Below, piece after piece: positions 11,034-35,808 of a stretch of DNA of 45,158 nt. A program made the position numbers and the translations under genes. Each line of letters starts with the position of its first letter. The first letter of the stretch is position 1. The stretch is from a bacterium (GTDB lineage Bacteria > Pseudomonadota > Alphaproteobacteria > Rs-D84 > CACZYB01): contig JAAVBO010000018.1 of NCBI GenBank assembly GCA_014803575.1, positions 1 to 45,158 of the forward strand, read 5' to 3'. The notes under the pieces were generated by a model. It was not told the origin of the DNA, made no database searches, and saw only the letters and a list, made by a program, of their open reading frames with translations.

Positions 11034-11080
11034 TGCAGGCACACAAATCTTGGGGATTATGACCTGATGATTACAAATCA
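11034..11080 (-). repeat. Left attachment site: decayed 3' half of tRNA-Thr with 20-bp core
   Basis: The core gacctgatgattacaaatca (11061-11080) is identical to 35761-35780 inside the intact tRNA-Thr gene. Left of it, tgcaggcacac (11034-11044) matches the acceptor-end sequence of that tRNA at 10 of 11 positions, while the T-arm between has lost its pairing and TTCGA. This is the displaced chromosomal 3' end after integration. The rest of the 10,881-11,337 gap holds a terminator (10881-10908), CGGCAAT repeats (11209-11293) and otherwise AT-rich DNA. Confidence 0.85.
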
Positions 11081-14566: not shown

Positions 14567-15424
14567 ATGCAAGTATTTAGGCTTAAATTATTTCCATCAA
14601 CAACAGGTGAATATCATAAAGGGGATAAAGACTATTGTCTTAAAAATAATCTAGCAGCTATCGGTTGGGCTATAGATGAAAATGCTGATAGTATTGATGA
14701 TTTTATAAATAAAGCTAGAAAACAATATAACAATCAAAGAGGATTCAATACAGCTTCAAAAACAATAATTGAAATGCAAGTAGGAGATCTATGTTGGGTT
14801 CAAGTCAAAGGTGACGACTATAGATTAGGAAAAATAGAAAGTGATATTTTGTATCATCCAGATCCAAATAATCCAAGAATTGGTTTAAGACGTAAATGTA
14901 TTTGGAAAGACATAGACTTTGATGATATTCCTGGTAAAGTAATTAGTTGTTTTTGTGGGAGAACAGGTACATTACAAAAGATACAGGATATTTCTTATGA
15001 TTACTGTAATTGGTTATATGAAGACAAACAAAATAATTTAAAAGTACAAGATATTAAATCTCTATTACATTATGATGATTTGGAAGATCTACTCGGTCTA
15101 TATTTACAAGATAAAGGTTATTATATATTACCATCAACAAATAAACAATCAACTAAACTAATTGAATATGAATTAAGAGATAAAAAAGGAAATAAAGCTT
15201 GTATTCAATGTAAAATTGGTAATTCTACTGTTGATGATGAACTTTTTAATGATGAAAGATTTAAAGATCATACAATTTTTATTTCCACTATCAGCGATAA
15301 TAATTATGATATCAAAGGTAAAAATGTTAAAACAATAGAAATAGATGAGTTATTATCTTTTGCTAAGACACATTTTGATATTTTACCTGAACGAATAAAA
15401 AATTACATAAAATTATCTGAATAA
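14567..15424 (+). CDS. PUA/EVE-like domain protein with PD-(D/E)XK nuclease-like C-terminus
   Basis: 285 residues. The N-terminal half (about 1-140) has a GWAID segment, a GDLCWVQVKGDDYRLGKI strand pair and conserved aromatic residues, in the style of PUA/EVE-like domains that read modified bases. The C-terminal half (about 165-250) looks like an Mrr-type restriction endonuclease core: DLEDLLGLYLQDKGYYIL helix-strand, then Glu200/Glu202, then CIQCK with Lys216. This pairing suggests a modification-dependent restriction enzyme. An AGGAGG site precedes the ATG. The acidic residue pairing is not certain, and no GTPase partner is nearby. Confidence 0.6.
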   Translation: MQVFRLKLFPSTTGEYHKGDKDYCLKNNLAAIGWAIDENADSIDDFINKARKQYNNQRGFNTASKTIIEMQVGDLCWVQVKGDDYRLGKIESDILYHPDPNNPRIGLRRKCIWKDIDFDDIPGKVISCFCGRTGTLQKIQDISYDYCNWLYEDKQNNLKVQDIKSLLHYDDLEDLLGLYLQDKGYYILPSTNKQSTKLIEYELRDKKGNKACIQCKIGNSTVDDELFNDERFKDHTIFISTISDNNYDIKGKNVKTIEIDELLSFAKTHFDILPERIKNYIKLSE

Positions 15425-15441
15425 GTATTAAATGAATATTA

Positions 15442-17430: not shown

Positions 17431-17556
17431 TTTAAATTCCTTGTTTTTAGGAAATTATACAATATAGGTAATCAAAAAAGCAAGGAACAATCTTTAAATA
17501 CCTAGTCTCAAAATCTATAGTTTGTTATTTTCTATAATATAGTAATTATTACAAAT

Positions 17557-17781
17557 ATATACCATTTTCATACCATATTTGACCTTTTATTACCTGTTAG
17601 CTACCTTTTGCAACCACTTTGAGACTACTCCACAATCAGCAAGCAAATATGCGTTTTATAGAAAATAGTTGAATATAACATATTGAAAAGACAGAATAAA
17701 ACTTGAATTTATTTTTTGACTTTTAAGTCTGTTTACCCTAATTATGCAACCATTTAGAATTTTTTGGAACCAAATACCAAC
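17557..17781 (-). repeat. Duplicated upstream region, copy A (in front of KAP1)
   Basis: Two blocks match copy B (20911-21122). Block 17557-17629 has 65 of 73 bases identical. Block 17703-17781 is identical over all 79 bases. The linker between them diverges but keeps TATAACATATTGAAAAGACA-like DNA. It lies upstream of KAP1 on the minus strand. A GACTT-TT-AAGTC palindrome sits in the perfect block. The remainder of the 521-bp gap (17431-17951) shows no gene; it holds the hairpin below and AT-rich DNA. Confidence 0.8.
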
Positions 17782-17817
17782 ATGTTTGATATTTTTTATA
17801 CCTTATATCAACATGTT
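17779..17817. promoter_or_regulatory. Inverted repeat at the end of copy A
   Basis: AACATGTTTGATAT (17779-17792) pairs with ATATCAACATGTT (17805-17817) with one bulged base. It begins where the perfect 79-bp repeat ends. Copy B has a different-sequence hairpin at the same place. Confidence 0.55.
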
Positions 17818-17951
17818 AAACTACCATTTCAATAAAAAGTATTTAGATAGTCATTTTTATCTGTGTTTTTATTATTTGCCATTTTTACTCCTATTTATAT
17901 AGGTAGGAATTGTTTAAAATTTTTCAATATTCTATTATCGGAAACTTTCTG

Positions 17952-19703
17952 TCAATTTAGATCAAGAGTATCTCTTATTTGTTGTAATACCTGAGTATTA
18001 TTTATATCATCCTTTGATAGATGGTTAAATACATAGGCTATAAAAGGTCGATAGTTGTTGAAATTAATATTTAATAACACATCAGGATTATATTTTAATA
18101 TCATTTTAAACATTTTAAAATTATCACTAAATAAATATATATCAAAAGCCTTATTTGTTTCATTTAATTCATTTATAAACCAAGACAATATATCATTAGA
18201 TTTTACAAATGTTATCAATCTATTATCTATCATATCTGTGTTTATCTTTGGATCTATGTTACCATGTATATGTACTAAATCAGAAGCAGTTCCTTTTTTA
18301 AACCAAATATCAGATATTTTTATCAACCATTTTTCATTTTCTTTAATATATTTGTCTCCACAATATAAAAAGAAAGTTAAAATTAACCTACATTCATTAA
18401 AAGAACTTATTTGATCTTTACAATTTATAATTTCTTTTATTATCCTATAACAATCTTCTTTATTTTTATAAATAAAACATATATCTAAAATTAAAGATAA
18501 CTTTGTTTCTTCAAATTTTTCTTCTATATATCTATCATCAACAATAGATAAATTAGACCATTTTATTGTATTTTCTAAAATATTGGTAAATTTATTTTTA
18601 TCAAATTTTATTATATTTTCTTTTAAATCATCTATATGTTTAATATATAGGTTAAAATGGAATTGTAAATTAGCTAAAAATCCATAGGTACAAAGTTTAT
18701 TATTTTTATCTGCATTTAGTATAGAATCAATATTATGTTCTATAATAGATACATTATCTTTTTTTAATTTCATATAAACTTTTTTAACTATATCAATAAA
18801 AAGTATAATGATTCTTAGATTATTAGTCTGATCAGTTGATGACTTCGTAGAAATCGTGCAAGTAGGTTTTACTAAACGATCATATAAATTTTTAAGCTCA
18901 ACATTATCTGTTTTAGTTAATTGCTCATATATTTCTGGATTGTAGGTCATATTATATTTATCAATACACATTTTTTCCTTATAATATGTATATTTGTTGT
19001 AATTTCTGTTCAATTCTTCTTCATTAGCTATAATTATTATATTAAAACCTTCGTTTTCCCTTAATTCATTTATAAAACCTAAAATTTCTCGTATATCAGT
19101 AGTATCCGATATTCTTTCCAAATCATCAAAAATAAACAATGTATTTTTACTTTCAAATAAATTATTTACATTTACTTTATTTAAAGATAGTCCACTTCCA
19201 AGACATTTATTATATAAAGCTAATAATAAATTATTTAATGGGAACCATTTACTAACAACATTCAAAAAAATATATATAGAAAAAATATAAAATAATTTAG
19301 TTAATAAATGAAAAGGAAACCAAATAAACATATAGTCTTTATCAAAAAGAGGAATAGTTATATTAAATATAACAAATTGCTTCGTACAAAAAATAAGAAA
19401 AAACAAATAAGTAATATCAAATATCATAAATAGATAAAATAGGCATTTACCTATTTTACTTAATAGTTCTAATTTATTATTCATGTAAAAATCTATAATC
19501 TGATTTTTGATTTCTTCTTTATTTTTTATACCAAACAAAGAAATCTTAACTATATTTTTAAAATATTTTTTTATTTTGGGACATATATTATGTTCTACAT
19601 AATACGTTTTTCCAATACCCCATGGACCTTCAATCATACATATTTTTGGAGTATTGCTCTCTACTTTGTTGTCATTCTTAATTAGTTCCACTATATCTAT
19701 CAT
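17952..19703 (-). CDS. KAP-family P-loop NTPase with transmembrane insert (KAP2)
   Basis: 583 residues. Walker A GPWGIGKT (26-33) and Walker B LFIFDDLERIS (189-199) flank two membrane spans (about 87-105 and 128-150), as in KAP1; an IIIIANEEEL strand follows. It lacks the N-terminal extension of KAP1 but shares the SLFGIK segment after Walker A and the C-terminal helical region. It is the third gene of a minus-strand run behind the GIY-YIG and membrane-anchored wHTH-like genes, 53 bp after the latter. KAP NTPases are recurrent in antiphage islands, where the ATPase is thought to sense or transmit a signal at the membrane. Confidence 0.85.
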   Translation of the reverse strand: MIDIVELIKNDNKVESNTPKICMIEGPWGIGKTYYVEHNICPKIKKYFKNIVKISLFGIKNKEEIKNQIIDFYMNNKLELLSKIGKCLFYLFMIFDITYLFFLIFCTKQFVIFNITIPLFDKDYMFIWFPFHLLTKLFYIFSIYIFLNVVSKWFPLNNLLLALYNKCLGSGLSLNKVNVNNLFESKNTLFIFDDLERISDTTDIREILGFINELRENEGFNIIIIANEEELNRNYNKYTYYKEKMCIDKYNMTYNPEIYEQLTKTDNVELKNLYDRLVKPTCTISTKSSTDQTNNLRIIILFIDIVKKVYMKLKKDNVSIIEHNIDSILNADKNNKLCTYGFLANLQFHFNLYIKHIDDLKENIIKFDKNKFTNILENTIKWSNLSIVDDRYIEEKFEETKLSLILDICFIYKNKEDCYRIIKEIINCKDQISSFNECRLILTFFLYCGDKYIKENEKWLIKISDIWFKKGTASDLVHIHGNIDPKINTDMIDNRLITFVKSNDILSWFINELNETNKAFDIYLFSDNFKMFKMILKYNPDVLLNINFNNYRPFIAYVFNHLSKDDINNTQVLQQIRDTLDLN

Positions 19704-19756
19704 TTTAATTTTATTAGTTTTTAATTTCTTAAAATTTATAAAAAAGAAAACTTTAA

Positions 19757-20206
19757 TTATTTTTTTATATTTATATTATTTGTATTTTTCAATTCGGTTT
19801 TAACTATTGTTTGAATTTTTGTTTCATTTGGGAAATAGTAATTTAAAACAGAGATAATTAAACCTATGACAGCTATTAATGTTGTAATTGCCCATTTAAA
19901 ATTTTCGAACTTGTTTTTACTTATTTCTTCCAGATATTTTCGACCTATATTAGTCAATTTATAATCATCATGAAATGTATTCAATTTAGTAGGTATTTGA
20001 CATATATATTCTTTATCAAGAGCATTTTGTAATAATTGTTTAATCTTGTTATCATTAAACTCTTTTATATATTTTTTCAAATCGTTTAAATTCTTACCAT
20101 CTACATATTTGTGTAATCCCTCAATACTATAAAAATCAAATGTTTTATATTCTCCATTTCCTTCATACTCTGACATAAACTTTAATAATTTATCCGATTT
20201 TTTCAT
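19757..20206 (-). CDS. Membrane-anchored protein with winged-helix-like N-terminus
   Basis: 149 residues. The N-terminal 100 residues are helical with a LTNIGRKYLEEI segment typical of the last part of winged-helix domains. One membrane span lies at about 105-127 (WAITTLIAVIGLIISVLNYYF), followed by a short polar tail with repeated Asn. It overlaps the GIY-YIG gene by 4 bp, so expression is coupled. KAP2 is downstream. The tail resembles that of the 69-residue protein at 13349-13558 in composition. Function unknown; it may anchor the GIY-YIG protein or a complex at the membrane. Confidence 0.6.
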   Translation of the reverse strand: MKKSDKLLKFMSEYEGNGEYKTFDFYSIEGLHKYVDGKNLNDLKKYIKEFNDNKIKQLLQNALDKEYICQIPTKLNTFHDDYKLTNIGRKYLEEISKNKFENFKWAITTLIAVIGLIISVLNYYFPNETKIQTIVKTELKNTNNINIKK

Positions 20207-20832
20207 TCTTTTTCCTCATTTTCCTCTTCAAGTCTTAGTCTTCTATCAGCTAAAACCTCGCCTTCGTATTCAAAATATGCTGGACCTTGAACAGATTTCC
20301 AATGATAACCTAACTCTTCAATTAATTTCTGAGCAAGAGCGGACAAACTATACTCCTCTCCCTCATATTCAACTTTTTTATCAGAAATAACTTTTGCTAT
20401 TTTATTTTCATCACGAGTAAATGTAATTTCTGCACCTACCGGAATATTCGCACTTGAAAAAGTAAACGGAGTACGCAAACTTTTTTCAACTTTAGCATTT
20501 TCAAAAGTGCTACCATCTTCATCAATCATATCATTATTTCCAAATTGAACTTCTCTGCCTCCTATAGCTTTAAGCATAGAGACAGCACGTTCCGGAGATA
20601 AAGTAAAAAACTCTCTATTTTTCCTTACTCTGTGATCAGAAAAGGCATCATGTATAAGTTTTTCCTTGATATCATAATCTTCAACTTCTATTGCATAATG
20701 GCAACGAAAAGGAAGTGGGATTCCAGTAGTATCAAGCTCTCTCATCCTTCTTTTGATATCAGTTGTAATCCCAATTTTTATAACGCTGGGCATTGCATCG
20801 TTTGTAAAAATATAAATAATTCCCTTTGACAT
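20203..20832 (-). CDS. GIY-YIG nuclease (T5orf172 type) with DUF4357 domain
   Basis: 209 residues. N-terminal GIY-YIG-like domain of the T5orf172 subgroup (IYIFTNDAM, then IKIGITTDIKRRMREL with the conserved Arg in the helix, about 6-100, and EFFTLS near 96-101). C-terminal DUF4357 (about 120-195; IPVGAEITFTRDENKIAKVI, YSLSALAQKLIEELG). The domain pair is known from restriction-associated and mobile-element genes. It is the first gene of a three-gene minus-strand run with the wHTH-like membrane protein and KAP2. Promoter and SD (AAAAGGA) are visible. DNA cleavage is inferred from the fold. Confidence 0.8.
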   Translation of the reverse strand: MSKGIIYIFTNDAMPSVIKIGITTDIKRRMRELDTTGIPLPFRCHYAIEVEDYDIKEKLIHDAFSDHRVRKNREFFTLSPERAVSMLKAIGGREVQFGNNDMIDEDGSTFENAKVEKSLRTPFTFSSANIPVGAEITFTRDENKIAKVISDKKVEYEGEEYSLSALAQKLIEELGYHWKSVQGPAYFEYEGEVLADRRLRLEEENEEKE

Positions 20833-20861
20833 TTTATTTTCCTTTTATTGATTATATGAAG

Positions 20862-20906
20862 ATATTCTATTTTATATTTTGTTTATTTACAATATTTTAT
20901 TTCCTT
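20862..20906 (-). repeat. 45-bp promoter repeat, copy 2
   Basis: Identical to 14462-14506. On the minus strand it carries TTGTAA (20892-20887), a 17-base spacer and TAGAAT (20869-20864), 30-60 bp upstream of the GIY-YIG start. Confidence 0.75.
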
Positions 20907-20910
20907 CAAA

Positions 20911-21122
20911 ATATACCATTTCTACACTATATTTGACCTTTTATTACCAGTTAGCCATCTTTTGCAACCACTTTGAGATTACTTGTAACTGGTAAATAAA
21001 GTATTTTTTTATTAAGTATAACATATTAAAAAGACAGAAAAATTTGAATTTATTTTTTGACTTTTAAGTCTGTTTACCCTAATTATGCAACCATTTAGAA
21101 TTTTTTGGAACCAAATACCAAC
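20911..21122 (-). repeat. Duplicated upstream region, copy B (in front of the GIY-YIG/KAP2 operon)
   Basis: Counterpart of copy A: 20911-20983 is the 89% block and 21044-21122 the perfect 79-base block. In this copy ttaccagtta (20944-20953) pairs exactly with taactggtaa (20986-20995) around a conserved loop, a pairing not kept in copy A. The 414-bp gap 20833-21246 contains no gene; it holds the 45-bp repeat, copy B, the hairpin at 21124-21151 and the KAP3 promoter. Confidence 0.8.
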
Positions 21123-21123
21123 C

Positions 21124-21151
21124 TATTTGATGGTTTCTACATCATCAAATA
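21124..21151. promoter_or_regulatory. Inverted repeat at the end of copy B
   Basis: TATTTGATG (21124-21132) pairs perfectly with CATCAAATA (21143-21151). It lies directly after the perfect repeat block, as does the hairpin of copy A, but the arms differ in sequence. Confidence 0.55.
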
Positions 21152-21184
21152 AAGTTCTATACTAAAAAATCTTTAAATCCCATA

Positions 21185-21213
21185 TTGAAATTTAAGGACA
21201 TGTTTCTTATATA
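21185..21213 (+). promoter_or_regulatory. Promoter of the soluble KAP NTPase gene
   Basis: TTGAAA (21185-21190), 17 bases, TATATA (21208-21213), followed by AGAAGGA and the ATG at 21247. Confidence 0.55.
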
Positions 21214-21246
21214 ATAATATAAATTGAATTAAGAGAAGGATTTGCA

Positions 21247-22575
21247 ATGAAAGACAAAGCTAATTTTTATAAATTATCAAAAGAAGAGCAAGAAAATATA
21301 GAAAATTTGTGGGAAGATGCATCTCCGGATGTAAAGACATTTGCTGATAATCTAACGGAAGAAATCAAATCATCCGATACTCCTTTTGTTTTGGGAATAG
21401 ATGGAGGTTATGGGACTGGTAAAACCTACTTTGCAACACGATTTTCCGAACACTTAAAAAGAAATAATATAAATACAATATATTGCAGTGTGTGGGAAAA
21501 TGATTATCTTGAAAATCCATTCATTGCTATATCGAAAGAAATTGTAAAATATACTAAGAATAATAATTTAACAGAAAAAATTAAAAAGTTATTCACTTCT
21601 ATCTGTAATGGAGTGTCCATTTCTGTTGGAATACCCAAAGTCGGAGATATATCCATAAATCCTTCAGATATTATAAAATCTTGGCAAGATGAGAAAAATG
21701 AAATTATTGAGTTCAAAAAAGCATTTGCAAACTTTATAGATAAACTTACAAACAAAAAGCTTGTTTTAATAATTGATGAGCTTGACAGATGCAAACCTGA
21801 TTTTGCTGTTAAAACATTGGAAATATTAAAACACTTCTTTGATATAGAAGGGCTATTTGTAATTTTAATGATAAATAAATCTAGGTTGGAAGAACATATC
21901 AATGCCTACTATAATATACAAAAAGATAATAAAAATGGAGAAGAATATCTTCAAAAATTTATAAACAGATACGAGCATATACCGAATATGAATTATGAGG
22001 TTGTTATCAATGATTCTTTAACAGTTGATAGTCTAAAACCAGCTATTGATAACGGAAATATTACACAAGATGACGGAGTGTTTTATAGTTTTAAAGAACT
22101 TAAAAATTATTTAATAACAGCTTGTTCCGATGCAAGATTAACATACCGAGAAAGCCAAGAGCTTTGCCAGAAATGTATAGATTTTTGTAACAATTACAAT
22201 GAACTCATAAGATGTAGATTTTTACCATATATTTTGATAAAGGATAGATTAACAGATAAAATCATTTTTAAAGATTGTAAAAAGTATATAACTGAGAAAA
22301 AACAAGAAATTATTGGTTTATTAAACAGAGGGTATTTTACAGGAGCTCCTAGTTTACCTATATGGTCTGTAATTGAAAATAAATATAAATCATTAACTTA
22401 TATTGATGATTGGGGTGAGGAAAAGTTAATATCTACTATGCTTAGAGAAACATATGATAGAATAACAGAAATATACAACGAATTAAAATTATATGGCCCT
22501 GATGATAATGATGAAGAAAGATTACAAAAATATGAAACCATAGCAAAAGATTTTAACAAATTATATGAAAAATAG
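21247..22575 (+). CDS. Soluble KAP-family P-loop NTPase (KAP3)
   Basis: 442 residues. Walker A GGYGTGKT (53-60) and Walker B LVLIIDELDRCKP (172-184) with the DELDRC signature of KAP NTPases, then a VILMINKSRLEEHI strand-helix. No membrane span lies between the motifs, unlike KAP1 and KAP2, and the family resemblance is closer to the KAP ATPases that occur as single proteins or with partner genes in antiphage loci. The C-terminal 230 residues are helical. It is transcribed divergently from the GIY-YIG operon and convergently with the 1096-residue gene, from which it is separated by 110 bp. Confidence 0.85.
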   Translation: MKDKANFYKLSKEEQENIENLWEDASPDVKTFADNLTEEIKSSDTPFVLGIDGGYGTGKTYFATRFSEHLKRNNINTIYCSVWENDYLENPFIAISKEIVKYTKNNNLTEKIKKLFTSICNGVSISVGIPKVGDISINPSDIIKSWQDEKNEIIEFKKAFANFIDKLTNKKLVLIIDELDRCKPDFAVKTLEILKHFFDIEGLFVILMINKSRLEEHINAYYNIQKDNKNGEEYLQKFINRYEHIPNMNYEVVINDSLTVDSLKPAIDNGNITQDDGVFYSFKELKNYLITACSDARLTYRESQELCQKCIDFCNNYNELIRCRFLPYILIKDRLTDKIIFKDCKKYITEKKQEIIGLLNRGYFTGAPSLPIWSVIENKYKSLTYIDDWGEEKLISTMLRETYDRITEIYNELKLYGPDDNDEERLQKYETIAKDFNKLYEK

Positions 22576-22685: not shown

Positions 22686-25600
22686 TTATTCAAAATAATA
22701 TTTTAACTTATCTATCCAGTTTTGATTTTCTGTTTGTAATAAAAATTCAGTCAAAAAATTATCCTTTTCTTTTTTTAATTCCTGAGATACATTATTTTGT
22801 TTAATGTATTTAACAACATCAATTATTATATTCCCATATGATAATTTAAAGTCTCTAGAATTTAATGATAATTTTTTCATTATATTAAATACTTGTATTG
22901 TATATAATGATAAGTCCTCTAATAATATTTCCCATTTTCCATATTCATCAAAATTTATATTAAACTTTTCTGATAGATCAATTAGTTGATTTAAACACCA
23001 TTCATGATTAAATTTACCATTTTGATACCAATATTGAAATCCATTTAGTTCTTTAACATTTATATTATCAGATTGTATTATAGTAAGTTTATATTTTTCC
23101 CAGAAATCAATAAATCTATTAATTTCTTTTTTTGTTATATCTTCATCGTTTTTATAAAATGCTATTTGTAAAATAAATTCTTTTCTTAAAATTGTATTCT
23201 TTTCCAATTTCAATAAAACTTTAATAATTTCACTAGAAGTATCAATTAAACCATAAGCAAAGTAATTAACTAAATGTTTAGCCATTACTCCACATAAATG
23301 AGATTCTTTATCTAACAGATTATTTGTTATAATATAAGTATATTTATTTCTTAATATATCCCACAATTTAAGAGATGTTTGGAAATGTTGTAATATTGGT
23401 GTAAAAGATGTAAGTAAAATATCTTCTTTTTCTTTGTTTTCTGGAAAAATATCATTTATATGTTTATTAACCCATTCAGGGATAGTTTTATATAATAAAT
23501 GAAATTTAATTCCAAAGATAGCGTACATTTCTAAATAAGTTTGTTTTGATAATATATCATCAAATAAAGGTATAACTTCATTAATATTCCTATTATTTAT
23601 AGTTTTCCAATAAGTATAAAATATCAAACATTCTAATATTTTCCCAAAATCTGAATTTATAGCATAAAAATCAATATCATTATCTTTTGAATATTTACTA
23701 TTTCTTTCATCTAATTTATTATCCTTTTGCAAAACTAAAACTTTTAATATTTTGAATATTTTATTTAAATATTTATCAGATAACTCTTTATTGTTATCAA
23801 CATTATAAAATAATTTGCATACTAATTCTATAAAGGAGATTTGAGCATCCTTCCAAGAAATTTCTATTTCTTCAACAGGGATATCAGTTTTTCTTTTCTG
23901 TTTAAATATCCAATAACCTAAATTTATTACTTTTTCCAATTCATGTAATGTTAATTCAACTTTTTGTAATCCATTAAAAATATAGTTTATATAAATGGGT
24001 TTAGATAAAGATTTAAATTTATTTAAAGAATTTGTATATTTTTTATGATTTTGTATAACATCAGTTTGAACAGTAGATGCTAAGCCAATATAAGAAAAAG
24101 CCTCAAAATCAAATTCATTAGCTGTAAATGTATTTAAATAATTTATTAATTGTTTAATTGACATATTTTTTATTGTATCAGCATCTATCGGAGATGAACA
24201 TTCCAATGATCTTTCACTCATATAATTACCAAATTTATCAGATTCTTCAAATTGTTTATCTGTTAAATAATCTTTAAATTGTTTTTTCTGTGTATTATTT
24301 AAATATTGTTTTATTGGTAATAATTTTCTAACTTTCCAATGATATACAAAAGAGGTATTCTCTTTATATTTTTCATTATTAGGACCGTTGTTAATATATG
24401 ATAGTATTTTATTTTGAATCTTTGCTGATAATTTATTGAATTTTTCATTTATTAATAAACTATATTCATGTTTATAGTTTGGATTTTCAAAGAAATTATA
24501 TTCTGTCAGATATTCTTCTAATACTTTTTTATCAAAACTATTTGAAACTCTAAGTAAATATAACATAATCCTGTTAAAAAATACAAACTTTTTATTGTTT
24601 AATAACTGTAATAGTTTATATGTTTTAGTTTTATCGTTTATATTTAAAATATTTTCTGATATATCTCGTATAACAGAAATAAATGAATATAAAATATTTT
24701 TATTATGTTCATCTTGGGTATGATACTCTATAGCTGCCCTTTGAGAAATATATGTATATAATTGATAAGATTGTTGTTGTTCCTCAGACAGATTTAAAAT
24801 CATATTTGTATACATATTACATAATTTTTCAAACAAACTTAAAGAATCAGGAAAATATTTTAAAGCTATCCGTGCTATTCTGTCATACTCATAAATATTT
24901 GTACTATTTGTTCCAAATTTACTTATCTCAATAAAATCTTCTCTTTTAATATTGAAAAAAATATCTTCATAAATTTCAATGTGTAATATTAATAATTCGT
25001 AAATAATATCTTCAGCTATATCATATTTACCTAATTCATTTAATCTGCTAATAAGTTTTTCCAACTCTTCATAATTATAAAATATTATATTGTTGTTATA
25101 TTTTAACCAATTTAAAAATAATTCAGCAATTTTTATAAATTCTTTATTTTTAAGTTCCAAACCTATATTAAATACTATTGTATATATAAGTTGCTCAGGA
25201 ATAGATGATTTATTATGAACATCATTAAATATTGTTGAAAATATTGACATTAGCTTTTTAGATTTTACATTTGCTATTCTTTTTAAATAAGGAAATGCTG
25301 GCCAAAATATATTTCTAAATCCACTTTCAGAATCTTGGTATTCCCATAACAATAATTTTGAATCTACTAATTTATTAAAACTAATATTATCAGCATTATT
25401 ATATTTATTGAAAAAATTAAATAATATAGACTTATCAAGTTTTTTTAAAGTGTCAATATCTCTATCTTTTAATTGTCTTTGATTCAATAAATTATCACAA
25501 CAATCTATTTTATCAAGCATAACATTTTTATGAATTAATAACATCATAAATTTATGAAATTTATTCATATAAAAGTCTAAGTTTTCATCAGAACAGAAAC

Positions 25601-25976
25601 TTCCATTATAATGTCTATAATTTGAAACATTTAGTTTTACCTTATGAATATTTTGTATTGCTTTTTCTAATTGTTCACTTGATATAAATTGTTTATAATT
25701 ACAAATTAAAAAATGTATTTTTTGTACTTCTTCATTATTTTTGTCCGTTGCATTATTCTTATATTTTCTATCTAAATAATTAATTAACTCATTAATACAA
25801 TGTGGTATAATTAGTTTTCTTGCAGGGAAATTTTCAATACGATAATTATAAATTATTGATTTATATATTTCAGAAATTTCTTCGCCATAATTAGATTCTA
25901 AGAATTCATAAATTTTTTTCTCTTCATTTGTTAATTGTATATTAGAAAATTGTCCTATGTCCAAAGATTTATCCAT
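22686..25976 (-). CDS. 1096-residue helical protein of unknown function
   Basis: No signal peptide, no membrane span and no recognisable nuclease, NTPase or protease motif. The sequence is very rich in Asn, Lys, Ile and Tyr and predominantly helical, with repeated amphipathic pairs in the middle (LISRLNELGKYDIAEDIIYE, for example) that look like TPR/HEAT-type solenoid repeats. The N-terminal segment has FPARKLIIPHCINELINYL, a conserved-looking Arg/His helix. The DNA is among the most AT-rich in the window. It stands alone between KAP3 and the PLD nuclease gene. Its size and place in a defence island make it a candidate stand-alone defence protein. Confidence 0.65.
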   Translation of the reverse strand: MDKSLDIGQFSNIQLTNEEKKIYEFLESNYGEEISEIYKSIIYNYRIENFPARKLIIPHCINELINYLDRKYKNNATDKNNEEVQKIHFLICNYKQFISSEQLEKAIQNIHKVKLNVSNYRHYNGSFCSDENLDFYMNKFHKFMMLLIHKNVMLDKIDCCDNLLNQRQLKDRDIDTLKKLDKSILFNFFNKYNNADNISFNKLVDSKLLLWEYQDSESGFRNIFWPAFPYLKRIANVKSKKLMSIFSTIFNDVHNKSSIPEQLIYTIVFNIGLELKNKEFIKIAELFLNWLKYNNNIIFYNYEELEKLISRLNELGKYDIAEDIIYELLILHIEIYEDIFFNIKREDFIEISKFGTNSTNIYEYDRIARIALKYFPDSLSLFEKLCNMYTNMILNLSEEQQQSYQLYTYISQRAAIEYHTQDEHNKNILYSFISVIRDISENILNINDKTKTYKLLQLLNNKKFVFFNRIMLYLLRVSNSFDKKVLEEYLTEYNFFENPNYKHEYSLLINEKFNKLSAKIQNKILSYINNGPNNEKYKENTSFVYHWKVRKLLPIKQYLNNTQKKQFKDYLTDKQFEESDKFGNYMSERSLECSSPIDADTIKNMSIKQLINYLNTFTANEFDFEAFSYIGLASTVQTDVIQNHKKYTNSLNKFKSLSKPIYINYIFNGLQKVELTLHELEKVINLGYWIFKQKRKTDIPVEEIEISWKDAQISFIELVCKLFYNVDNNKELSDKYLNKIFKILKVLVLQKDNKLDERNSKYSKDNDIDFYAINSDFGKILECLIFYTYWKTINNRNINEVIPLFDDILSKQTYLEMYAIFGIKFHLLYKTIPEWVNKHINDIFPENKEKEDILLTSFTPILQHFQTSLKLWDILRNKYTYIITNNLLDKESHLCGVMAKHLVNYFAYGLIDTSSEIIKVLLKLEKNTILRKEFILQIAFYKNDEDITKKEINRFIDFWEKYKLTIIQSDNINVKELNGFQYWYQNGKFNHEWCLNQLIDLSEKFNINFDEYGKWEILLEDLSLYTIQVFNIMKKLSLNSRDFKLSYGNIIIDVVKYIKQNNVSQELKKEKDNFLTEFLLQTENQNWIDKLKYYFE

Positions 25977-26729: not shown

Positions 26730-27326
26730 CTAATTTTTCATTTTTTTTATAAATTCACTTAATGTCTCCCTATGTACCTTTAATTTCTTTGATATATATA
26801 TTTTAGAATATCCCTGTGATATTAAATTTAAAATTATTTTTTCACATCCTGAAAGTTTTAATTTAGAACTCTTTGCACCAAATGGTCGACCTAATTTTTT
26901 ACCATTTGCCTTTCTTACAGCAAGAGCATCTCGAGTTCGTTGAGAAATTAAATTTCTTTCAATCTCAGCAGCTAAACCAAAAGCAAAAGCTAATACTTTA
27001 GATTGTATTCCCACATCAAGTCTAAAATTGTCTTTAATAGTAATAATTGTAGCATCTGTTTTTATACAAAAATGTAAAATAGACATTACTTCTAATAATT
27101 TTCTTCCTAATCTTGATAATTCACTTGCTATTAATAAATCTCCTGACTTTAATCCTTTTAATAATTTCCCTAATTTTCTTTGCGATAAATCTTTTGTTGA
27201 ACTAATTGTTTCTTCAACCCATTTATCAATTTTAATATTATATTTTTTACAATATTGTTGAATTTCCCATTTCTGATTTTCAAGGGTTTGTTTTGTAGTA
27301 CTAACTCTAATATATCCATAAATCAT
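26730..27326 (-). CDS. Serine recombinase / DNA invertase
   Basis: 198 residues from the ATG at 27326, chosen because AAAGGAAA lies just before it and the conserved start MIYGYIRVST follows. An upstream ATG at 27341 is in frame but has no site. Catalytic Ser9 and Arg7, SELSRLGR (about 70-77) and an AAEIERNLISQRTRDAL helix are present. The C-terminus has GRPFGAKSSKL and a helix-turn-helix, as in Hin/Pin-type invertases and small resolvases. The gene lies 55 bp from one arm of the 89-bp inverted repeat in hsdS, making it the likely catalyst of hsdS inversion. Confidence 0.9.
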   Translation of the reverse strand: MIYGYIRVSTTKQTLENQKWEIQQYCKKYNIKIDKWVEETISSTKDLSQRKLGKLLKGLKSGDLLIASELSRLGRKLLEVMSILHFCIKTDATIITIKDNFRLDVGIQSKVLAFAFGLAAEIERNLISQRTRDALAVRKANGKKLGRPFGAKSSKLKLSGCEKIILNLISQGYSKIYISKKLKVHRETLSEFIKKMKN

Positions 27327-27380
27327 TTTATTTCCTTTCATTTATATAATATCAGAAAATCTTTATACCACAAAAATTTT

Positions 27381-27469
27381 CTGCCGAAATTAAACGAGCC
27401 TTTAAATCCAGCAGATATACCGTTCCAAATACCTGATTCTTGGATGTGGGTAAGACTTGGAGATATTGG
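27381..27469 (+). repeat. hsdS inverted repeat, left arm (89 bp)
   Basis: Exactly complementary over 89 bases to 28438-28526. It encodes the conserved region before the second target-recognition domain (LPKLNEPLNPADIPFQIPDS and WMWVRLGDIG) in both the silent and the active hsdS. Confidence 0.95.
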
Positions 27470-27980
27470 GATATATAAAAAGGGTCCTTTTGGAAGTTCT
27501 TTAACAAAGGGAATTTTTGTAGATAAATGTCATAGTACAATAAAAGTATATGAACAGAAAAATGCAATTTATAAAAACCAAACATTGGGAACCTACTATA
27601 TCACAAAAGAATACTTTGAACGAAAAATGAAAGGATTTGAAGTTTTCCCTGGAGATATAATTGTTAGTTGCGCAGGAACTATTGGCGAAACATTTGTTAT
27701 GCCAGAAAATATGGAAAAAGGTATTATAAACCAAGCACTGATGAGAATAAGATTAAGCACTTTTGTTTTTGTTCCTTATTTTTTGCTGTTTTTCGAATGT
27801 ATAATCAAAAAAGCCTCTTCTGAAAAAAGTAAAGGTTCTGCAATAAAGAATATACCGCCATTTGAAATCTTCAAACAGATGCTTATGCCTTTACCTCCGC
27901 TAGCAGAACAAAAACGAATTGTCGAAAGAGTAAAAAGTTTAGACGGCCTGATTGATAATATGTTCAAATTGATGGCTTAA
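27381..27980 (+). pseudogene. Silent hsdS 3' cassette (alternative second recognition domain)
   Basis: About 200 codons in the opposite orientation to hsdS. After the 89-bp shared block it encodes a different target-recognition domain (IYKKGPFGSSLTKGIF, FEVFPGDIIVSCAGTIGETF) and the usual closing segment MPLPPLAEQKRIVERV. The frame extends upstream to 27255 but has no start with a ribosome site and overlaps the invertase gene, so it is not expressed as it stands. Its reading frame across the repeat equals that of hsdS, so inversion would give a full-length chimera. It overlaps the end of hsdS tail to tail by 42 bp. Confidence 0.9.
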
Positions 27981-28437
27981 CTTCATAAGTTCATCAACTT
28001 TATTTACAATTCTTTGTTGTTCATTTAAAGGCGCTAGTGGTATCAAAGTTTTTCCAAATTTTATTCCAGATATTTCTAAAAAAGTTGTTCCAGAAGCACG
28101 ACTAATAATATCCGAAAAACGAGATTGTAAAATATAATACAGGTATTCAATATCAATTAAACCGTATGGACTAATCGATCGAAAACCTTGGTTTGTGCAT
28201 AATTTTTCTTTAGTAATGGCTAAATATCCTATTGGGGCTCGACTAGAATAAACTATACTACCAGGTAGTAATAGTTGTGCAGAGGATTTTTGTAGTCCCA
28301 ATTCTGTGATTTTACGACTTCCAGATGAAACAAATTTATTTTTGATATTTTTCATATCGGCTGGGGTTAACCAAGGTATATCTCCATTCCAATATTCTAA
28401 AACTTCTGTCTTTGGTGTCCCACCACCAATAATTTGA
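27470..28437. other. Predicted invertible segment of hsdS
   Basis: 968 bp bounded by the exact 89-bp inverted repeats. It contains the active second recognition domain (minus strand) and the silent one (plus strand), converging at 27939-27980. Inversion exchanges one for the other and would change the DNA specificity of the type I system. Confidence 0.85.
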
Positions 28438-29438
28438 CCAATATCTCCAAGTCTTACCCACATCCAAGAATCAGGTATTTGGAACGGTATATCTGCTGGA
28501 TTTAAAGGCTCGTTTAATTTCGGCAGTTTAGATGGCTTGATTTTGCCCTCTTTGGTCAGCCTATTTTTCTCGGATTGGATTTGTTCGTATAGTACACTTG
28601 CTGGCTCATCCATTGGATCTTGCGGGACAAGACGACCTGAAACAGCTTCTTGTAAAATAGAATTTCTTAATTCATCTGGAAATGTGGATTTTAAACGAGC
28701 CAATTCTTCCGCCAAGTTACCATAACGATTAACTAACGGCTCAAGCTCTTCTATCTTTTCAACTATACGCCTTTGTTCCACCAGCGGTGGCAGAGGAATT
28801 AGTATATTATTTAAACTTGTAGAGTTTAAAGTTTTACCTTTGACGGCCTCCTTAGTATCAGATACAAATATAGTCAAATACGGTAAAGTTTTGAACAAAT
28901 AGTCGGTTATAATATTTGCCGTATCAATAAAAGGAAATATAGATACTATAGCTTCGTTATGAAAGGAATTCATTTCTAGCTTAGATACTTTACCTATGGT
29001 TAGTTTAAAACTCATAAGCAGGGTACCCTTAGGAGAAATCTTTTTTTTGAATATATCTACATTAGCTTTTTCTGATATACTTTCTTTTGTACAATTTATT
29101 GACTTTCCATCAACTAAATCGGCAATAGATACCCACGGGTATCCACATCCCCAATATTCTGTATCGTTTCTTGATGGGGTTTTCCCCATGACAAGCTCCG
29201 CAATATCTCCCAATTTTACCCACATCCAGCTGGATGGAATTTTAAACGGCGGCTCCAGCGGATTTATATGATTTTTTTTCTTCAGCGATTTTATTTTGCC
29301 TTCTTTTATCAGTCTATTCTTTTCGATTTGAATTTGCTCATATAGTACGCTTGCAGGTTCATCTGCAGGGTTTTGAGGAACAAGACGACCGGATATTGCA
29401 AGTTGAAGAATAGAATTTTTTAAATCTGTCGCTTTCAT
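27939..29438 (-). CDS. hsdS: Type I restriction-modification specificity subunit HsdS
   Basis: 499 residues with two target-recognition domains and repeated conserved regions. The N-terminus NSILQLAISGRLVPQNP and the central NSILQEAVSGRLVPQDP are internal copies. Recognition domain 1 spans about 55-215 (closing IPLPPLVEQRRIVEKI) and domain 2 about 325-480 (closing IPLAPLNEQQRIVNKV). Each domain reads one half of a bipartite DNA target. The ATG directly abuts the hsdM stop. The second half lies in the invertible segment, so the present sequence is one of at least two possible forms. Confidence 0.95.
   Translation of the reverse strand: MKATDLKNSILQLAISGRLVPQNPADEPASVLYEQIQIEKNRLIKEGKIKSLKKKNHINPLEPPFKIPSSWMWVKLGDIAELVMGKTPSRNDTEYWGCGYPWVSIADLVDGKSINCTKESISEKANVDIFKKKISPKGTLLMSFKLTIGKVSKLEMNSFHNEAIVSIFPFIDTANIITDYLFKTLPYLTIFVSDTKEAVKGKTLNSTSLNNILIPLPPLVEQRRIVEKIEELEPLVNRYGNLAEELARLKSTFPDELRNSILQEAVSGRLVPQDPMDEPASVLYEQIQSEKNRLTKEGKIKPSKLPKLNEPLNPADIPFQIPDSWMWVRLGDIGQIIGGGTPKTEVLEYWNGDIPWLTPADMKNIKNKFVSSGSRKITELGLQKSSAQLLLPGSIVYSSRAPIGYLAITKEKLCTNQGFRSISPYGLIDIEYLYYILQSRFSDIISRASGTTFLEISGIKFGKTLIPLAPLNEQQRIVNKVDELMKLSHQFEHIINQAV
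28438..28526 (-). repeat. hsdS inverted repeat, right arm (89 bp)
   Basis: Reverse complement of 27381-27469 without a mismatch. It lies inside hsdS between the central conserved region and the second recognition domain. Confidence 0.95.
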
Positions 29439-30896
29439 TTAATTTATCCCCAATATTGTCTTAATTTGACCAATTACTTCTAACATTTCATTTTCCAACA
29501 CAGTTTTCTTATTTTCAAACTGTTCGAAAAGCTCTTTAGGTTCCAAAATAACCGTCTCAACTGTTGGATAGCCACACAAATCTAAATTAAAATTGCGCTC
29601 CTTTAATTCATCAAAAGTATATTTCTTGGCTTTATCAAAACCATCTTCTTGTATTTCCTGTCTATTATTCCACCATTCTCTAACTGGATCAAAATGTTCC
29701 AGTTGCATTGGTTTTGTTTTATTAAAGGCTTTTACACCTTCTGGCATATCAAGTCGATAAAACCATGTTTCTTTTGTCTGACCACTTTTATCAAAAAATA
29801 ATAGATTTGTATTAATGCTTGTATATGGAGCAAATACTGTTTTAGGCAATCTTATAACTGTATGTAAATTACATTTCGTTAAAAGTTCTTCTTTTATACG
29901 AGTTTTTGCACCACCTTCGCCAAATAATGCTCCATCTGGCAAAACCATTGCACAACGTCCAGTATCTTTTAATAATTTAATGATTAAAACTAAGAATAAA
30001 TCAGCTGTTTCCTTAGTCCTAACATGTGCAGGGAAATTAGATTCTATGCCATCTTCCTCCTCGCCACCGAACGGTGGATTAGTTAAAATTATATTAACCT
30101 TATCTTTTTCTGAGTAATCACTTAATGGACGTGCTAAACTACCATTTATAAAGTGTTTAATATTCGGTGCATCTATCCCGTGTAAAATCATATTTGTTAT
30201 ACAGAGAATATAAGGAAGTTGTTTCTTCTCCCAACCTATGATACCATCGCATAGCGTATTAAAATCCTTACCAGTTTTTAACTGCAGATTCAGATAATTA
30301 ACAGCAGAAGCTAAAAATCCACCAGTTCCACAAGCTGGATCTAGAATTTTTTCACCTAACTTAGGTGCTGTCATTTCAACCATAAACTGTGTAACAGCAC
30401 GTGGAGTATAGAATTCGCCAGAATGTTTATTGTTTTGTAAATCTTTTAATAATTGTTCATAAATATCACCGAATAAATGTTTGTCGGTTCCTTTATTAAA
30501 ATCAATTTCATCAATTTTATTTATAACCTGCCGGAGTAATTGTCCAGATTTCATATAGTTATGGGTATCGTCAAAGACAGAACGCACCATCGCGGCATTA
30601 GGATCTGAAACACCCAAAGATTTAAGTCCTGGAAATAAATCTTTATTTACAAAATCGAGTAACTCCTCCCCAGTTATACCCTCATCATTTTCAGCCCATG
30701 AAGACCATTTCAAATTTTCAGGAATCGGGGATTTATAATCCTCGTTAATAAGGAGATTTTCTTTCTCTCTATCTGAGAATATCTTCAAAAATAACATCCA
30801 AGTAAGCTGGCCAAGTCTTTGAGCATCACCATCAACACCAGGATCTTTACGCATAATTTTCTGTATAGATTTTACTATTTGACTAACGTTTGACAT
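29439..30896 (-). CDS. hsdM: Type I DNA adenine methyltransferase HsdM
   Basis: 485 residues. SAM-binding motif DPACGTGGF (186-194) and catalytic NPPFGG (273-278) of N6-adenine methyltransferases. The N-terminal helical domain (1-160) with GQLTWMLFLKIFSDRE is typical of HsdM, and a C-terminal coiled-coil segment binds HsdS. It methylates the site chosen by HsdS and protects self DNA. It starts 6 bp after hsdR and abuts hsdS, forming the operon hsdR-hsdM-hsdS. Confidence 0.97.
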   Translation of the reverse strand: MSNVSQIVKSIQKIMRKDPGVDGDAQRLGQLTWMLFLKIFSDREKENLLINEDYKSPIPENLKWSSWAENDEGITGEELLDFVNKDLFPGLKSLGVSDPNAAMVRSVFDDTHNYMKSGQLLRQVINKIDEIDFNKGTDKHLFGDIYEQLLKDLQNNKHSGEFYTPRAVTQFMVEMTAPKLGEKILDPACGTGGFLASAVNYLNLQLKTGKDFNTLCDGIIGWEKKQLPYILCITNMILHGIDAPNIKHFINGSLARPLSDYSEKDKVNIILTNPPFGGEEEDGIESNFPAHVRTKETADLFLVLIIKLLKDTGRCAMVLPDGALFGEGGAKTRIKEELLTKCNLHTVIRLPKTVFAPYTSINTNLLFFDKSGQTKETWFYRLDMPEGVKAFNKTKPMQLEHFDPVREWWNNRQEIQEDGFDKAKKYTFDELKERNFNLDLCGYPTVETVILEPKELFEQFENKKTVLENEMLEVIGQIKTILGIN

Positions 30897-30902
30897 TTTA
30901 TA

Positions 30903-33254
30903 TTATCCCCCATATATTAAATTTTTTATTTTTTCTATCGTATTCAAATATTCTTCATTACCGCCAATTTTTCCAAACATTTCAACAATAGTTCCGTATT
31001 TTTTTTCAAAATTAGCTGTTTTTAAAATTTTTCTATCTTCCAATGCGGATATACCTATTTCAATATACCTCGTTAACATATCGGTATAAAATTCTTTTTT
31101 TATATCAGGAAGTTGTTCTATAAACTCATTACAAAAAACGGCACGTTCTTTTCGAGTAATTGGCTCTATGTCATAGGTATTTTTTAACAGCATATCAAAA
31201 ATATCTATATCGTCAGGATATAAAGATTTAAATTCTTTGATAATTAACCCATCCTCGACAAGTTCTTCTATAAGAGAAGTCTTTTTACGAGATGATAACC
31301 ACGCAGAACGGAAATCACTTTCAGTTGCATAACGTTTTAAAATAAAGTTTTTATAATAATTCTGTATGTTCTCACAAATAAGCTTTCCACTTTCATCTAA
31401 CCATTGAACTTGTTTATCTACAATAGAAACAGGAACATCATCTATAATATATTTATTATTTGGTCTTTCATCAACAATATCTGCGTCATCCCAATCCATT
31501 TCTGAAATATCATCTGGTTCGGATTCTACATCGATATCCCATTCATCTGGCGCATCGGACGGTTCATCAACATCAGCTCCTGCAACAATTTTTATTTCCG
31601 TTGGCGTTCCATCAAATTCTGGATCAGCAAACAACCTAGTAGCTTTACGGAAATCCATAATCGTGAAATAATATTTATGATATTCTTCATTTATACGAGT
31701 TCCACGTCCAATAATCTGTTTAAATTCTGTCATTGAATTTATTGTTCTATCTAGAACAACCAACTTACAAAGTTTTGCATCAACACCTGTTGTCATAAGG
31801 CGGGAAGTAACAGCAATAACTGGATATTTTACATCTAACGCAATAAAATTATCCAGTTCATACTTACCTTCCATATCATCACCAGTGATTTTCATAACAT
31901 ATTTACTATTTTCTTTCATGAAATCAGCTGCATGTCTTGCTATAGCATCTCTCATACGAGTGGCGTGATCTATATTTTCACAGAAAATTATTGTTTTAGC
32001 ATATGGATCGTTTTCTCTCAAGAATTTCATAACAGTCTTGGCAACTGTCTCCGTTCTGGCATTCAGAATAATTGTTTTATCCCAATCCTTATCTGTATAT
32101 TCTCTATCCGGTATTTCATTCCCATATTTATCCAACTTACCCAGTTCTGGTCTCCAGCCTAGATCTTTATCCAAAACTACCCGCATAACTTTATATGGTG
32201 CAAGAAAACCATCTGCAATCCCCTCCTTTAATGAGTAGGTATATATCGGTTTACCAAAATATAAACTTGTTGAAACATCCTTATCTTCTTTCGGTGTAGC
32301 AGTCATACCGATTTGTGTAGCAGAACTAAAATATTCAAGTATTTCATGCCATGATGAATTTTCCTTTGCAGACCCACGATGACACTCATCAACAATAATT
32401 AAATCAAAGAAATTTTTTGAGAATTGCTTGTATATATTTTTATCTTCTTCTGTACCTGTCACAGCCTGATATAAAGACAAATAAATCTCATATGATTTAT
32501 TAACAGTTCTGTCTTCTATCTTTGTCATAGCATTACCAAAAGGAGCAAAGTCTTGTACTTTTGTTTGGTCTATTAAAATATTCCTATCAGCAAGAAATAA
32601 TATTCGTTTCTTTTGTTTAGATTTCCATAAACGCCAAATTATTTGAAAAGCTGTATATGTTTTTCCTGTCCCTGTCGCCATTACCAACAAAATACGTTTT
32701 TGTCCCTGTATCACAGCTTCTACTGTACGATTAATGGCATTTCTTTGATAATATCTAGGTTCTTTCCCAGAGTTATCTATGTAGTAATCTGATAAAATTT
32801 CTTTCCCTTGCAATACATCTAAGCCTTTAGCAATCCGATAGCGCCTCCATAATTCTTCTGGAGTTGGAAATTCATCTATTTTCAACTCTCTTTCCTTACC
32901 AGTCAAAAAATCATGTTCATAAAAACCCTTGCCGTTAGAACTATATACAAAAGGCACATTCAAACATTCTGCATATGCCATTCCTTGTTGCAATCCATCA
33001 CTAACACCTCGATAAAGCTTCTTAGCCTCAACTATTGCTATCGGAAAATTTGGTTTATAAAACAATAAGTAATCTGCTTTCTTTTTCTTTCCCTTCCGAA
33101 TTTCTTTATCTTTTACCATTATCCTACCATTGGTAAAAGAATATTCCATCCTAATCTGATTTCTCGGATCCCACCCACTATTAGTAATAGCAGGCGTTAT
33201 TTCTAATCTTTTTGTATCTTCTTCGGATAAATTTTTATTTATACGAATTTCCAT
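30903..33254 (-). CDS. hsdR: Type I restriction endonuclease/translocase HsdR
   Basis: 783 residues. N-terminal PD-(D/E)XK nuclease with Asp61 and Glu76-Ala-Lys78 (IAIVEAKKL). SF2 translocase motor with Walker A MATGTGKT (192-199), DECH box (289-292), TATPKEDKD and GRGTRI (motif VI). A C-terminal helical region binds the methylase core. The length matches the shorter EcoAI-like class more than the 1000-residue EcoKI or EcoR124 type. It pumps DNA by ATP hydrolysis and cuts it remotely from unmethylated sites. First gene of the operon, with a good promoter 30 bp upstream. Confidence 0.97.
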   Translation of the reverse strand: MEIRINKNLSEEDTKRLEITPAITNSGWDPRNQIRMEYSFTNGRIMVKDKEIRKGKKKKADYLLFYKPNFPIAIVEAKKLYRGVSDGLQQGMAYAECLNVPFVYSSNGKGFYEHDFLTGKERELKIDEFPTPEELWRRYRIAKGLDVLQGKEILSDYYIDNSGKEPRYYQRNAINRTVEAVIQGQKRILLVMATGTGKTYTAFQIIWRLWKSKQKKRILFLADRNILIDQTKVQDFAPFGNAMTKIEDRTVNKSYEIYLSLYQAVTGTEEDKNIYKQFSKNFFDLIIVDECHRGSAKENSSWHEILEYFSSATQIGMTATPKEDKDVSTSLYFGKPIYTYSLKEGIADGFLAPYKVMRVVLDKDLGWRPELGKLDKYGNEIPDREYTDKDWDKTIILNARTETVAKTVMKFLRENDPYAKTIIFCENIDHATRMRDAIARHAADFMKENSKYVMKITGDDMEGKYELDNFIALDVKYPVIAVTSRLMTTGVDAKLCKLVVLDRTINSMTEFKQIIGRGTRINEEYHKYYFTIMDFRKATRLFADPEFDGTPTEIKIVAGADVDEPSDAPDEWDIDVESEPDDISEMDWDDADIVDERPNNKYIIDDVPVSIVDKQVQWLDESGKLICENIQNYYKNFILKRYATESDFRSAWLSSRKKTSLIEELVEDGLIIKEFKSLYPDDIDIFDMLLKNTYDIEPITRKERAVFCNEFIEQLPDIKKEFYTDMLTRYIEIGISALEDRKILKTANFEKKYGTIVEMFGKIGGNEEYLNTIEKIKNLIYGG

Positions 33255-33433: not shown

Positions 33434-33661
33434 TTATATTTCTCCTGCTAAAACAAATTTCTTTAAATCAGATAAATACATAACTTTTATGTAGTTATTT
33501 ATAATAAATAAATTAACATACAGTTTCTTTGCTAAATCTCCCTCATCAATTATCTCCTTGTCTATGGCAAGTCCCCGCTGGTGGCAAAACTCCATTACGC
33601 CAAATTTTTGACATGTATAATCTTGTTTATCTGTTGACACTCTGTAATATGCATATATCAA
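33434..33661 (-). pseudogene. Truncated serine recombinase
   Basis: 75 residues. The first 40 (MIYAYYRVSTDKQDYTCQ, then FCHQRGLAIDKEIIDEG) are the N-terminus of a serine recombinase with Arg7 and Ser9. After IDEG the expected Gly-Thr motif and the SELSRLGR catalytic helix are missing, replaced by an unrelated Tyr/Ile/Lys-rich stretch. It is therefore a remnant cut by deletion or rearrangement. It overlaps the stop of the upstream 111-residue gene by 4 bp, so the start may still be translated. Confidence 0.7.

Positions 33662-35732: not shown

Positions 35733-35808
<76 letters not shown>

What the first reader, a model, noticed from the sequence alone, without database searches (positions are those of the whole stretch)
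27381..28526. Invertible type I restriction specificity gene with an adjacent serine recombinase
An exact 89-bp inverted repeat joins the active hsdS and a silent, oppositely oriented hsdS half carrying a different second recognition domain. The frame is preserved across the repeat in both. The two genes converge inside the 968-bp segment with a 42-bp overlap. A Hin/Pin-like serine recombinase gene begins 55 bp from one arm. Phase-variable hsdS loci are usually associated with tyrosine recombinases, so the serine enzyme would be unusual. Inversion would change the methylome and restriction specificity of the cell.
Basis: partly seen in the sequence, partly recalled or inferred. Interest (0 to 1): 0.85.

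Follow-up and report, generated by a model that had tools for sequence, protein, structure and literature searches.

The report
Flippable hsdS run by serine invertase
A gut bacterium carries a DNA-defence gene whose sequence-reading half can be swapped by flipping a 1.1-kb DNA segment, apparently by a neighbouring serine invertase of the Mpi family (best known for flipping surface-gene promoters) rather than by the tyrosine recombinase found at the other switches of this kind that could be checked.

Summary
In detail: an exact 89-bp inverted repeat (27381-27469 / 28438-28526, 968 bp apart) joins the second half of an active hsdS to an oppositely oriented hsdS half. Flipping the segment in silico swaps a 499-aa HsdS for an intact 503-aa HsdS with another second TRD. 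The neighbouring recombinase is not Hin/Pin proper: it passes the NCBIfam cut-off for Mpi-family serine invertases. Five contigs carry an hsdM at least 91% identical. Two (rabbit, horse) repeat the whole layout; three stop within hsdS, and one of those genomes has an Mpi gene beside the same repeat on a second contig. TRDs silent in one lineage are active in another, and the silent TRD is under purifying selection (dN/dS about 0.09). A site matrix built only from non-hsdS Mpi-linked repeats puts its two best positions in 26.0-33.3 kb inside the two arms. Related Mpi + inverted-TRD cassettes occur in type IIG-like genes of the same order, IMG/VR contigs and a Lactococcus plasmid. Inversion itself, its catalyst and a methylome change are inferred, not observed. 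Verdict: real; a new variant of a known kind (phase-variable type I R-M) with a different recombinase class.

The parts
27381..27469 (+). inverted repeat arm next to the invertase; start of the silent hsdS half (start of TRD2)
   Evidence: 89 nt, 100% complementary to 28438-28526
28438..28526 (-). inverted repeat arm inside the active hsdS
27392..27403 (+). proposed crossover site AAACG-AG-CCTTT, core AG at 27397-27398
   Evidence: best-scoring site pair of a held-out matrix in 26.0-33.3 kb; function inferred
28504..28515 (-). proposed crossover site, partner copy
   Evidence: function inferred
27939..29438 (-). active hsdS, 499 aa, two TRDs
27381..27980 (+). silent hsdS half with an alternative TRD2 (37% identical to the active TRD2)
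26730..27341 (-). Mpi-family serine invertase, 203 aa (or 198 aa from 27326)
29439..30896 (-). hsdM, 485 aa
30903..33254 (-). hsdR, 783 aa, EcoAI/FtnUII family
   Evidence: NF046051 1046 bits, cut-off 550

Best explanation
[quoted passage not shown] hsdR, hsdM and hsdS lie in that order on the minus strand. The 3' half of hsdS sits in a segment bounded by inverted copies of the sequence at the start of TRD2. A linked Mpi-family serine invertase, divergent from the silent half, recombines the two copies, probably at the quasi-palindrome AAACG-AG-CCTTT, and flips the segment. That replaces TRD2 and leaves the reading frame, TRD1, hsdM and hsdR unchanged, so the cell alternates between two bipartite recognition sequences sharing the TRD1 half-site. 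Shown: architecture, frame preservation, recurrence, TRD exchange between lineages, selection on the silent TRD, shared site motif. Inferred: that inversion occurs, that this invertase does it, and that methylation changes.
For: Exact 89-bp arms and intact 503-aa flipped product. Mpi family above cut-off, catalytic motifs intact. Same layout in rabbit L052 and horse L054; sheep G062 contigs start with the same ~97 bp and continue into hsdS/hsdM on one and an Mpi gene on the other. All 10 in-silico flips in five loci leave intact genes. L054 active TRD1 is L052 silent TRD1 (83%); W silent TRD2 is L052 silent TRD2 (74%) with dN 0.139, dS 1.53. Held-out site matrix picks both arms. Cousin invertases sit beside type IIG-like genes with inverted TRD copies and beside a promoter-type switch.
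Against: No flipped form of this very locus was found; one assembly per species is held. The Mpi family includes trans-acting enzymes, and the same genome has two more Mpi-like genes (one with an internal stop) plus a fragment, any of which could act here. The motif test is small and partly post hoc. General recombination over 89 bp is not excluded. No consensus promoter was found in 27300-27500.
Confidence: 0.8

Rival explanations
1. The segment inverts, but by RecA-dependent or other general recombination over the 89-bp repeat; the neighbouring Mpi gene acts on other sites.
For: recA is present (2580-3641) and 89 bp is long enough for homologous recombination (general knowledge). In S. pneumoniae, spnIII inversion is only partly due to the linked CreX (PMC6620402).
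Against: In that same study inversion was RecA-independent. Mpi genes recur 25-60 bp from the arm in hsdS and type IIG loci, with repeats as short as 17-25 bp in the latter, and the arms carry a site shared with a promoter-type switch.
Confidence: 0.12
2. The arrangement is static: a leftover duplication that no longer flips.
For: Only one orientation of this locus was seen.
Against: Arms are 100% identical, the silent TRD is open and under purifying selection, and TRDs change places between lineages.
Confidence: 0.05
3. Assembly artefact: two hsdS alleles wrongly joined head to head.
For: The genome is an unnamed 26-contig assembly of 1.12 Mb, most likely a MAG.
Against: Separate assemblies from rabbit and horse show the same layout with different TRDs and a different invertase sequence.
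Confidence: 0.02

Closest known systems
Inverting type I R-M systems with a linked tyrosine recombinase (S. pneumoniae SpnIII/cod with CreX/PsrA; B. fragilis hsdS shufflons; S. suis SsuCC20p)
   Same: One expressed hsdS, an inverted silent copy, repeats between TRDs, a linked recombinase, in-frame TRD exchange
   Different: The linked recombinase is a serine invertase of the Mpi family; only TRD2 switches in the window, a two-state switch
Mpi of Bacteroides fragilis (master promoter invertase)
   Same: Same NCBIfam equivalog family
   Different: Mpi flips 13 regions, mostly polysaccharide promoters, in trans (PMC4747536, PMC5903667); this gene is linked to one R-M locus and would flip a coding domain in cis
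Hin/Gin/Pin invertases
   Same: Catalytic domain; best solved matches are DNA invertases (4m6f, 3uj3)
   Different: Different subfamily; dependence on Fis and an enhancer unknown
Type IIG-like R-M genes with inverted TRD copy and Mpi-family invertase (L119, L121, L209, L241, L269)
   Same: Same cassette plan and invertase family, similar site motif
   Different: Target is the C-terminal TRD of a fused methylase, not HsdS

Membership tests
Phase-variable (inverting) type I R-M system | hsdR, hsdM and hsdS present | tested here: met
Phase-variable (inverting) type I R-M system | inverted repeats linking expressed and silent hsdS with frame preserved on inversion | tested here: met
Phase-variable (inverting) type I R-M system | both orientations found within one population | not testable with these tools
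   no reads; indirect signs only in related loci
Phase-variable (inverting) type I R-M system | methylation specificity changes with orientation | not testable with these tools
   needs methylome data
Mpi-family serine invertase | score above NF009949 cut-off | tested here: met
   284.5 vs 272 bits; relatives 292-305 bits
Mpi-family serine invertase | conserved serine-recombinase catalytic motifs | tested here: met
   R7, S9, R72, R75, E121, E123 invariant in six sequences; aligned to invertase structures
Mpi-family serine invertase | inverts DNA between its sites | not testable with these tools
   only a site motif in the arms
hsdS inversion by a linked tyrosine recombinase (CreX/PsrA type) | linked tyrosine recombinase gene | tested here: not met
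   the adjacent gene is a Resolvase-fold serine recombinase; the window's only integrase-like gene is 15 kb away at 11338-12498
EcoAI/FtnUII-type R-M | HsdR above the NF046051 cut-off | tested here: met
   1046 vs 550 bits

The most novel reading that the evidence does not exclude
Mpi-family serine invertases form a general, exchangeable engine for R-M specificity switching (type I HsdS and type IIG-like enzymes, in Alphaproteobacteria, a Lactococcus plasmid and IMG/VR contigs). Within one locus nested site pairs carry different central dinucleotides (L052 GT and AG; L121 AG, AC, AT), so one enzyme would exchange TRD1 and TRD2 independently without cross-joining them.
Probability: 0.35. Interest if true: 0.72.

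Novelty: new variant of a known kind. Interest (0 to 1): 0.55.

Why it matters
If true, methylome switching by hsdS inversion is not tied to tyrosine recombinases, and the invertase family known for capsule-promoter switching also switches defence specificity in little-studied gut Alphaproteobacteria. It offers a site motif (about AAAWCG-NN-CGWTTT) to look for further switches, and a simple two-state system testable with one enzyme and two arms.

Tried and rejected
IMG/VR scans with the single invertase found nothing and with hsdM one distant locus; a six-protein alignment worked. Succinivibrio dextrinosolvens (L111) has a serine recombinase next to hsdS, but it is not Mpi family (29.7 vs 272 bits) and no inverted repeat of 20 bp or more was found, so it was not counted. 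The 22-member Mpi-like clade of the order has no clear linked R-M repeat and probably serves other sites. A first motif guess on the wrong strand was replaced by the dyad model once type IIG and promoter sites were added. The Bacteroides Mpi site consensus could not be checked: the original paper is not held and a term search found nothing. Two key hsdS-inverton papers were not held.

Full report
Observation. The repeat tool finds arms 27381-27469 and 28438-28526, 89 nt, 100% complementary, 968 nt apart. hsdS runs 29438..27939 on the minus strand (499 aa), hsdM 30896..29439, hsdR 33254..30903. The silent hsdS half is open from the repeat at 27381 to the stop at 27980, giving the 42-bp overlap. 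Pfam gives two Methylase_S stretches in HsdS and one in the silent half. Reversing 27381-28526 in silico gives an intact 503-aa protein that departs from the active HsdS at residue index 334. 'Silent' is inferred from the missing 5' half of the gene.

Recombinase. The neighbour is a 198- or 203-aa small serine recombinase. It passes the NCBIfam equivalog cut-off for the 'master DNA invertase Mpi family' (284.5 vs 272 bits). Its closest solved relatives are DNA invertases (4m6f, 3uj3). The catalytic serine and the arginine and glutamate motifs are invariant in six R-M-linked relatives. 'Hin/Pin-like' is right in class but not in subfamily.

Recurrence. A scan of GTDB genome contigs with HsdM returned 67 loci; five match at 91-93%. 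Rabbit MAG L052 has hsdR-hsdM-hsdS, a nearly full-length convergent inverted hsdS and an Mpi gene, with three repeat pairs. Horse MAG L054 has hsdS, an inverted half and an Mpi gene, with a 59-bp repeat pair. The other three contigs stop within hsdS: L053 (98.8% identical to L052) and L055 at the TRD1-start repeat, L056 near the central region. L055 is the same contig as G062:C8 by length and sequence; in G062 a second contig starts with the same ~97 bp and continues into an Mpi gene. Every in-silico flip in W, L052, L054, L119 and L121 (10 flips) leaves an intact gene. HsdM at 91% or more occurs in only 4 of 201 genomes of the order, including this one, so the system is sporadic, which suggests horizontal spread.

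TRD exchange and selection. L054's active TRD1 matches L052's silent TRD1 at 83%; L054's active TRD2 matches L052's active TRD2 at 78%; W's active TRD1 matches L052's active TRD1 at 73%; W's silent TRD2 matches L052's silent TRD2 at 74%. Other pairs are about 23-41%. A TRD silent in one lineage is thus active in another. W's silent TRD2 against L052's has dN 0.139 and dS 1.53, a ratio like those of the pairs of expressed TRDs (0.07-0.10). A half-gene that was never expressed should not look like this. dS is near saturation, so the ratio is rough.

The invertase family in context. Matches to the window's invertase occur in 78 of 96 relatives at E <= 0.001. The nearest, in G067 and G039 (63-64%), sit beside type IIG-like R-M genes of about 1100 aa with a convergent inverted TRD copy. 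IMG/VR contigs L209, L230 and L241 and Lactococcus cremoris plasmid pJM1F (NZ_CP016750.2, L269) have the same design with frame-preserving flips; L219 too, though its sequence holds an N and one flip breaks the frame. 'Type IIG-like' is my reading of a fused methylase with a C-terminal TRD; the G067 protein also scores weakly to BREX PglX models. In G089 a related gene flanks a 92-bp segment with 19-bp arms in front of an autotransporter-like gene, a promoter-type switch. In the tree the R-M-linked genes fall outside the 22-member clade and the promoter clade, but deep forks are weakly supported.

Site. The repeats of these loci share a quasi-palindrome, about AAAWCG-NN-CGWTTT. A matrix built from seven non-hsdS sites, central two bases ignored, was scanned over the window. 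In 26.0-33.3 kb its two best of 14,578 positions are 28504 and 27392, one in each hsdS arm. In the whole window 7 of 90,294 positions reach that score, and 6 of 507 tiles of 89 bp do. In L052 the best two are at the outer edge of the TRD1-start repeats and the next two in the central repeats; in L054 the arms rank 2-3. W and L054 are homologous and count once. The training sites were picked by eye and several type IIG sites are homologous to each other, so this is good but not conclusive support. A discovery run on six repeats reached an information content that 0 of 150 mononucleotide shuffles matched. The central dinucleotide differs between nested pairs of one locus (L052 GT/AG; L121 AG/AC/AT). 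Serine recombinases need matching central dinucleotides to religate (general knowledge), so this may act as an address; that is inference.

Evidence for inversion in nature is indirect. In G052 a type IIG-like gene runs off contig C5, and the Mpi gene with the silent piece starts contig C2; they share only 17 bp, GTCCGTTTTCTTAAAAC. A 17-bp repeat should not break an assembly unless both orientations were present, though low coverage is another possible cause. The G062 break fits too, but a ~97-bp repeat can break an assembly by its length alone.

Setting. The locus lies in a putative 24.7-kb island: a P4-like integrase at 11338-12498 and a 20-bp direct repeat at 11061-11080 and 35761-35780, the second inside tRNA-Thr. 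The island also holds KAP-type ATPases and several PADLOC candidate defence proteins.

Comparison and novelty. Inverting hsdS systems are well known. Where the enzyme class is stated in the papers consulted it is tyrosine (PMC3090145, PMC7096588); Atack 2020 (PMC7394358) speaks only of 'recombinase/integrase'. The two inverted-hsdS controls found here (L063 Clostridia, L098 Leyella stercorea) carry Xer-like tyrosine recombinases. Ten searches of the held library found no paper on a serine invertase at hsdS, but key surveys are not held, so priority cannot be claimed. I rate it a new variant of a known kind.

Noticed in passing
window 11061-35780: Putative 24.7-kb genomic island: 20-bp direct repeat GACCTGATGATTACAAATCA at 11061-11080 and in the tRNA-Thr gene (35761-35780), integrase at 11338-12498.
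   Followed up: partly
window 14567-22575: Several PADLOC candidate defence proteins (PDC-S02, PDC-S49 twice, PDC-S57, PDC-S20) cluster in the same island.
   Followed up: no
window 22686-25976 (-): 1096-aa protein with no Pfam, NCBIfam or PADLOC match.
   Followed up: no
window 33434-33661 (-): Short fragment of a second serine recombinase gene (37% over 41 aa to the Mpi gene) just upstream of hsdR.
   Followed up: no
L119 8016-9216; L121 9772-11447: Type IIG-like R-M genes with nested inverted repeats, a convergent spare TRD and an Mpi-family invertase; flips keep the frame.
   Followed up: yes
L269 4188-5973 (Lactococcus cremoris plasmid pJM1F): Same cassette plan on a named plasmid: N-6 methylase, inverted TaqI-like specificity domain, Mpi-family invertase, three repeat pairs.
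   Followed up: partly
L155 9911-10040: 19-bp arms around 92 bp between an Mpi-like gene and an autotransporter-like gene: likely invertible promoter.
   Followed up: partly
L266 6377-6393 and L267 61-77 (G052): Two contigs of one genome end at a 17-bp shared sequence in a type IIG-like gene and next to an Mpi gene, as expected if both orientations coexist.
   Followed up: partly
L053: A contig filed under a Gastranaerophilales MAG is 98.8% identical to alphaproteobacterial locus L052; probably misbinned, though transfer is possible.
   Followed up: partly
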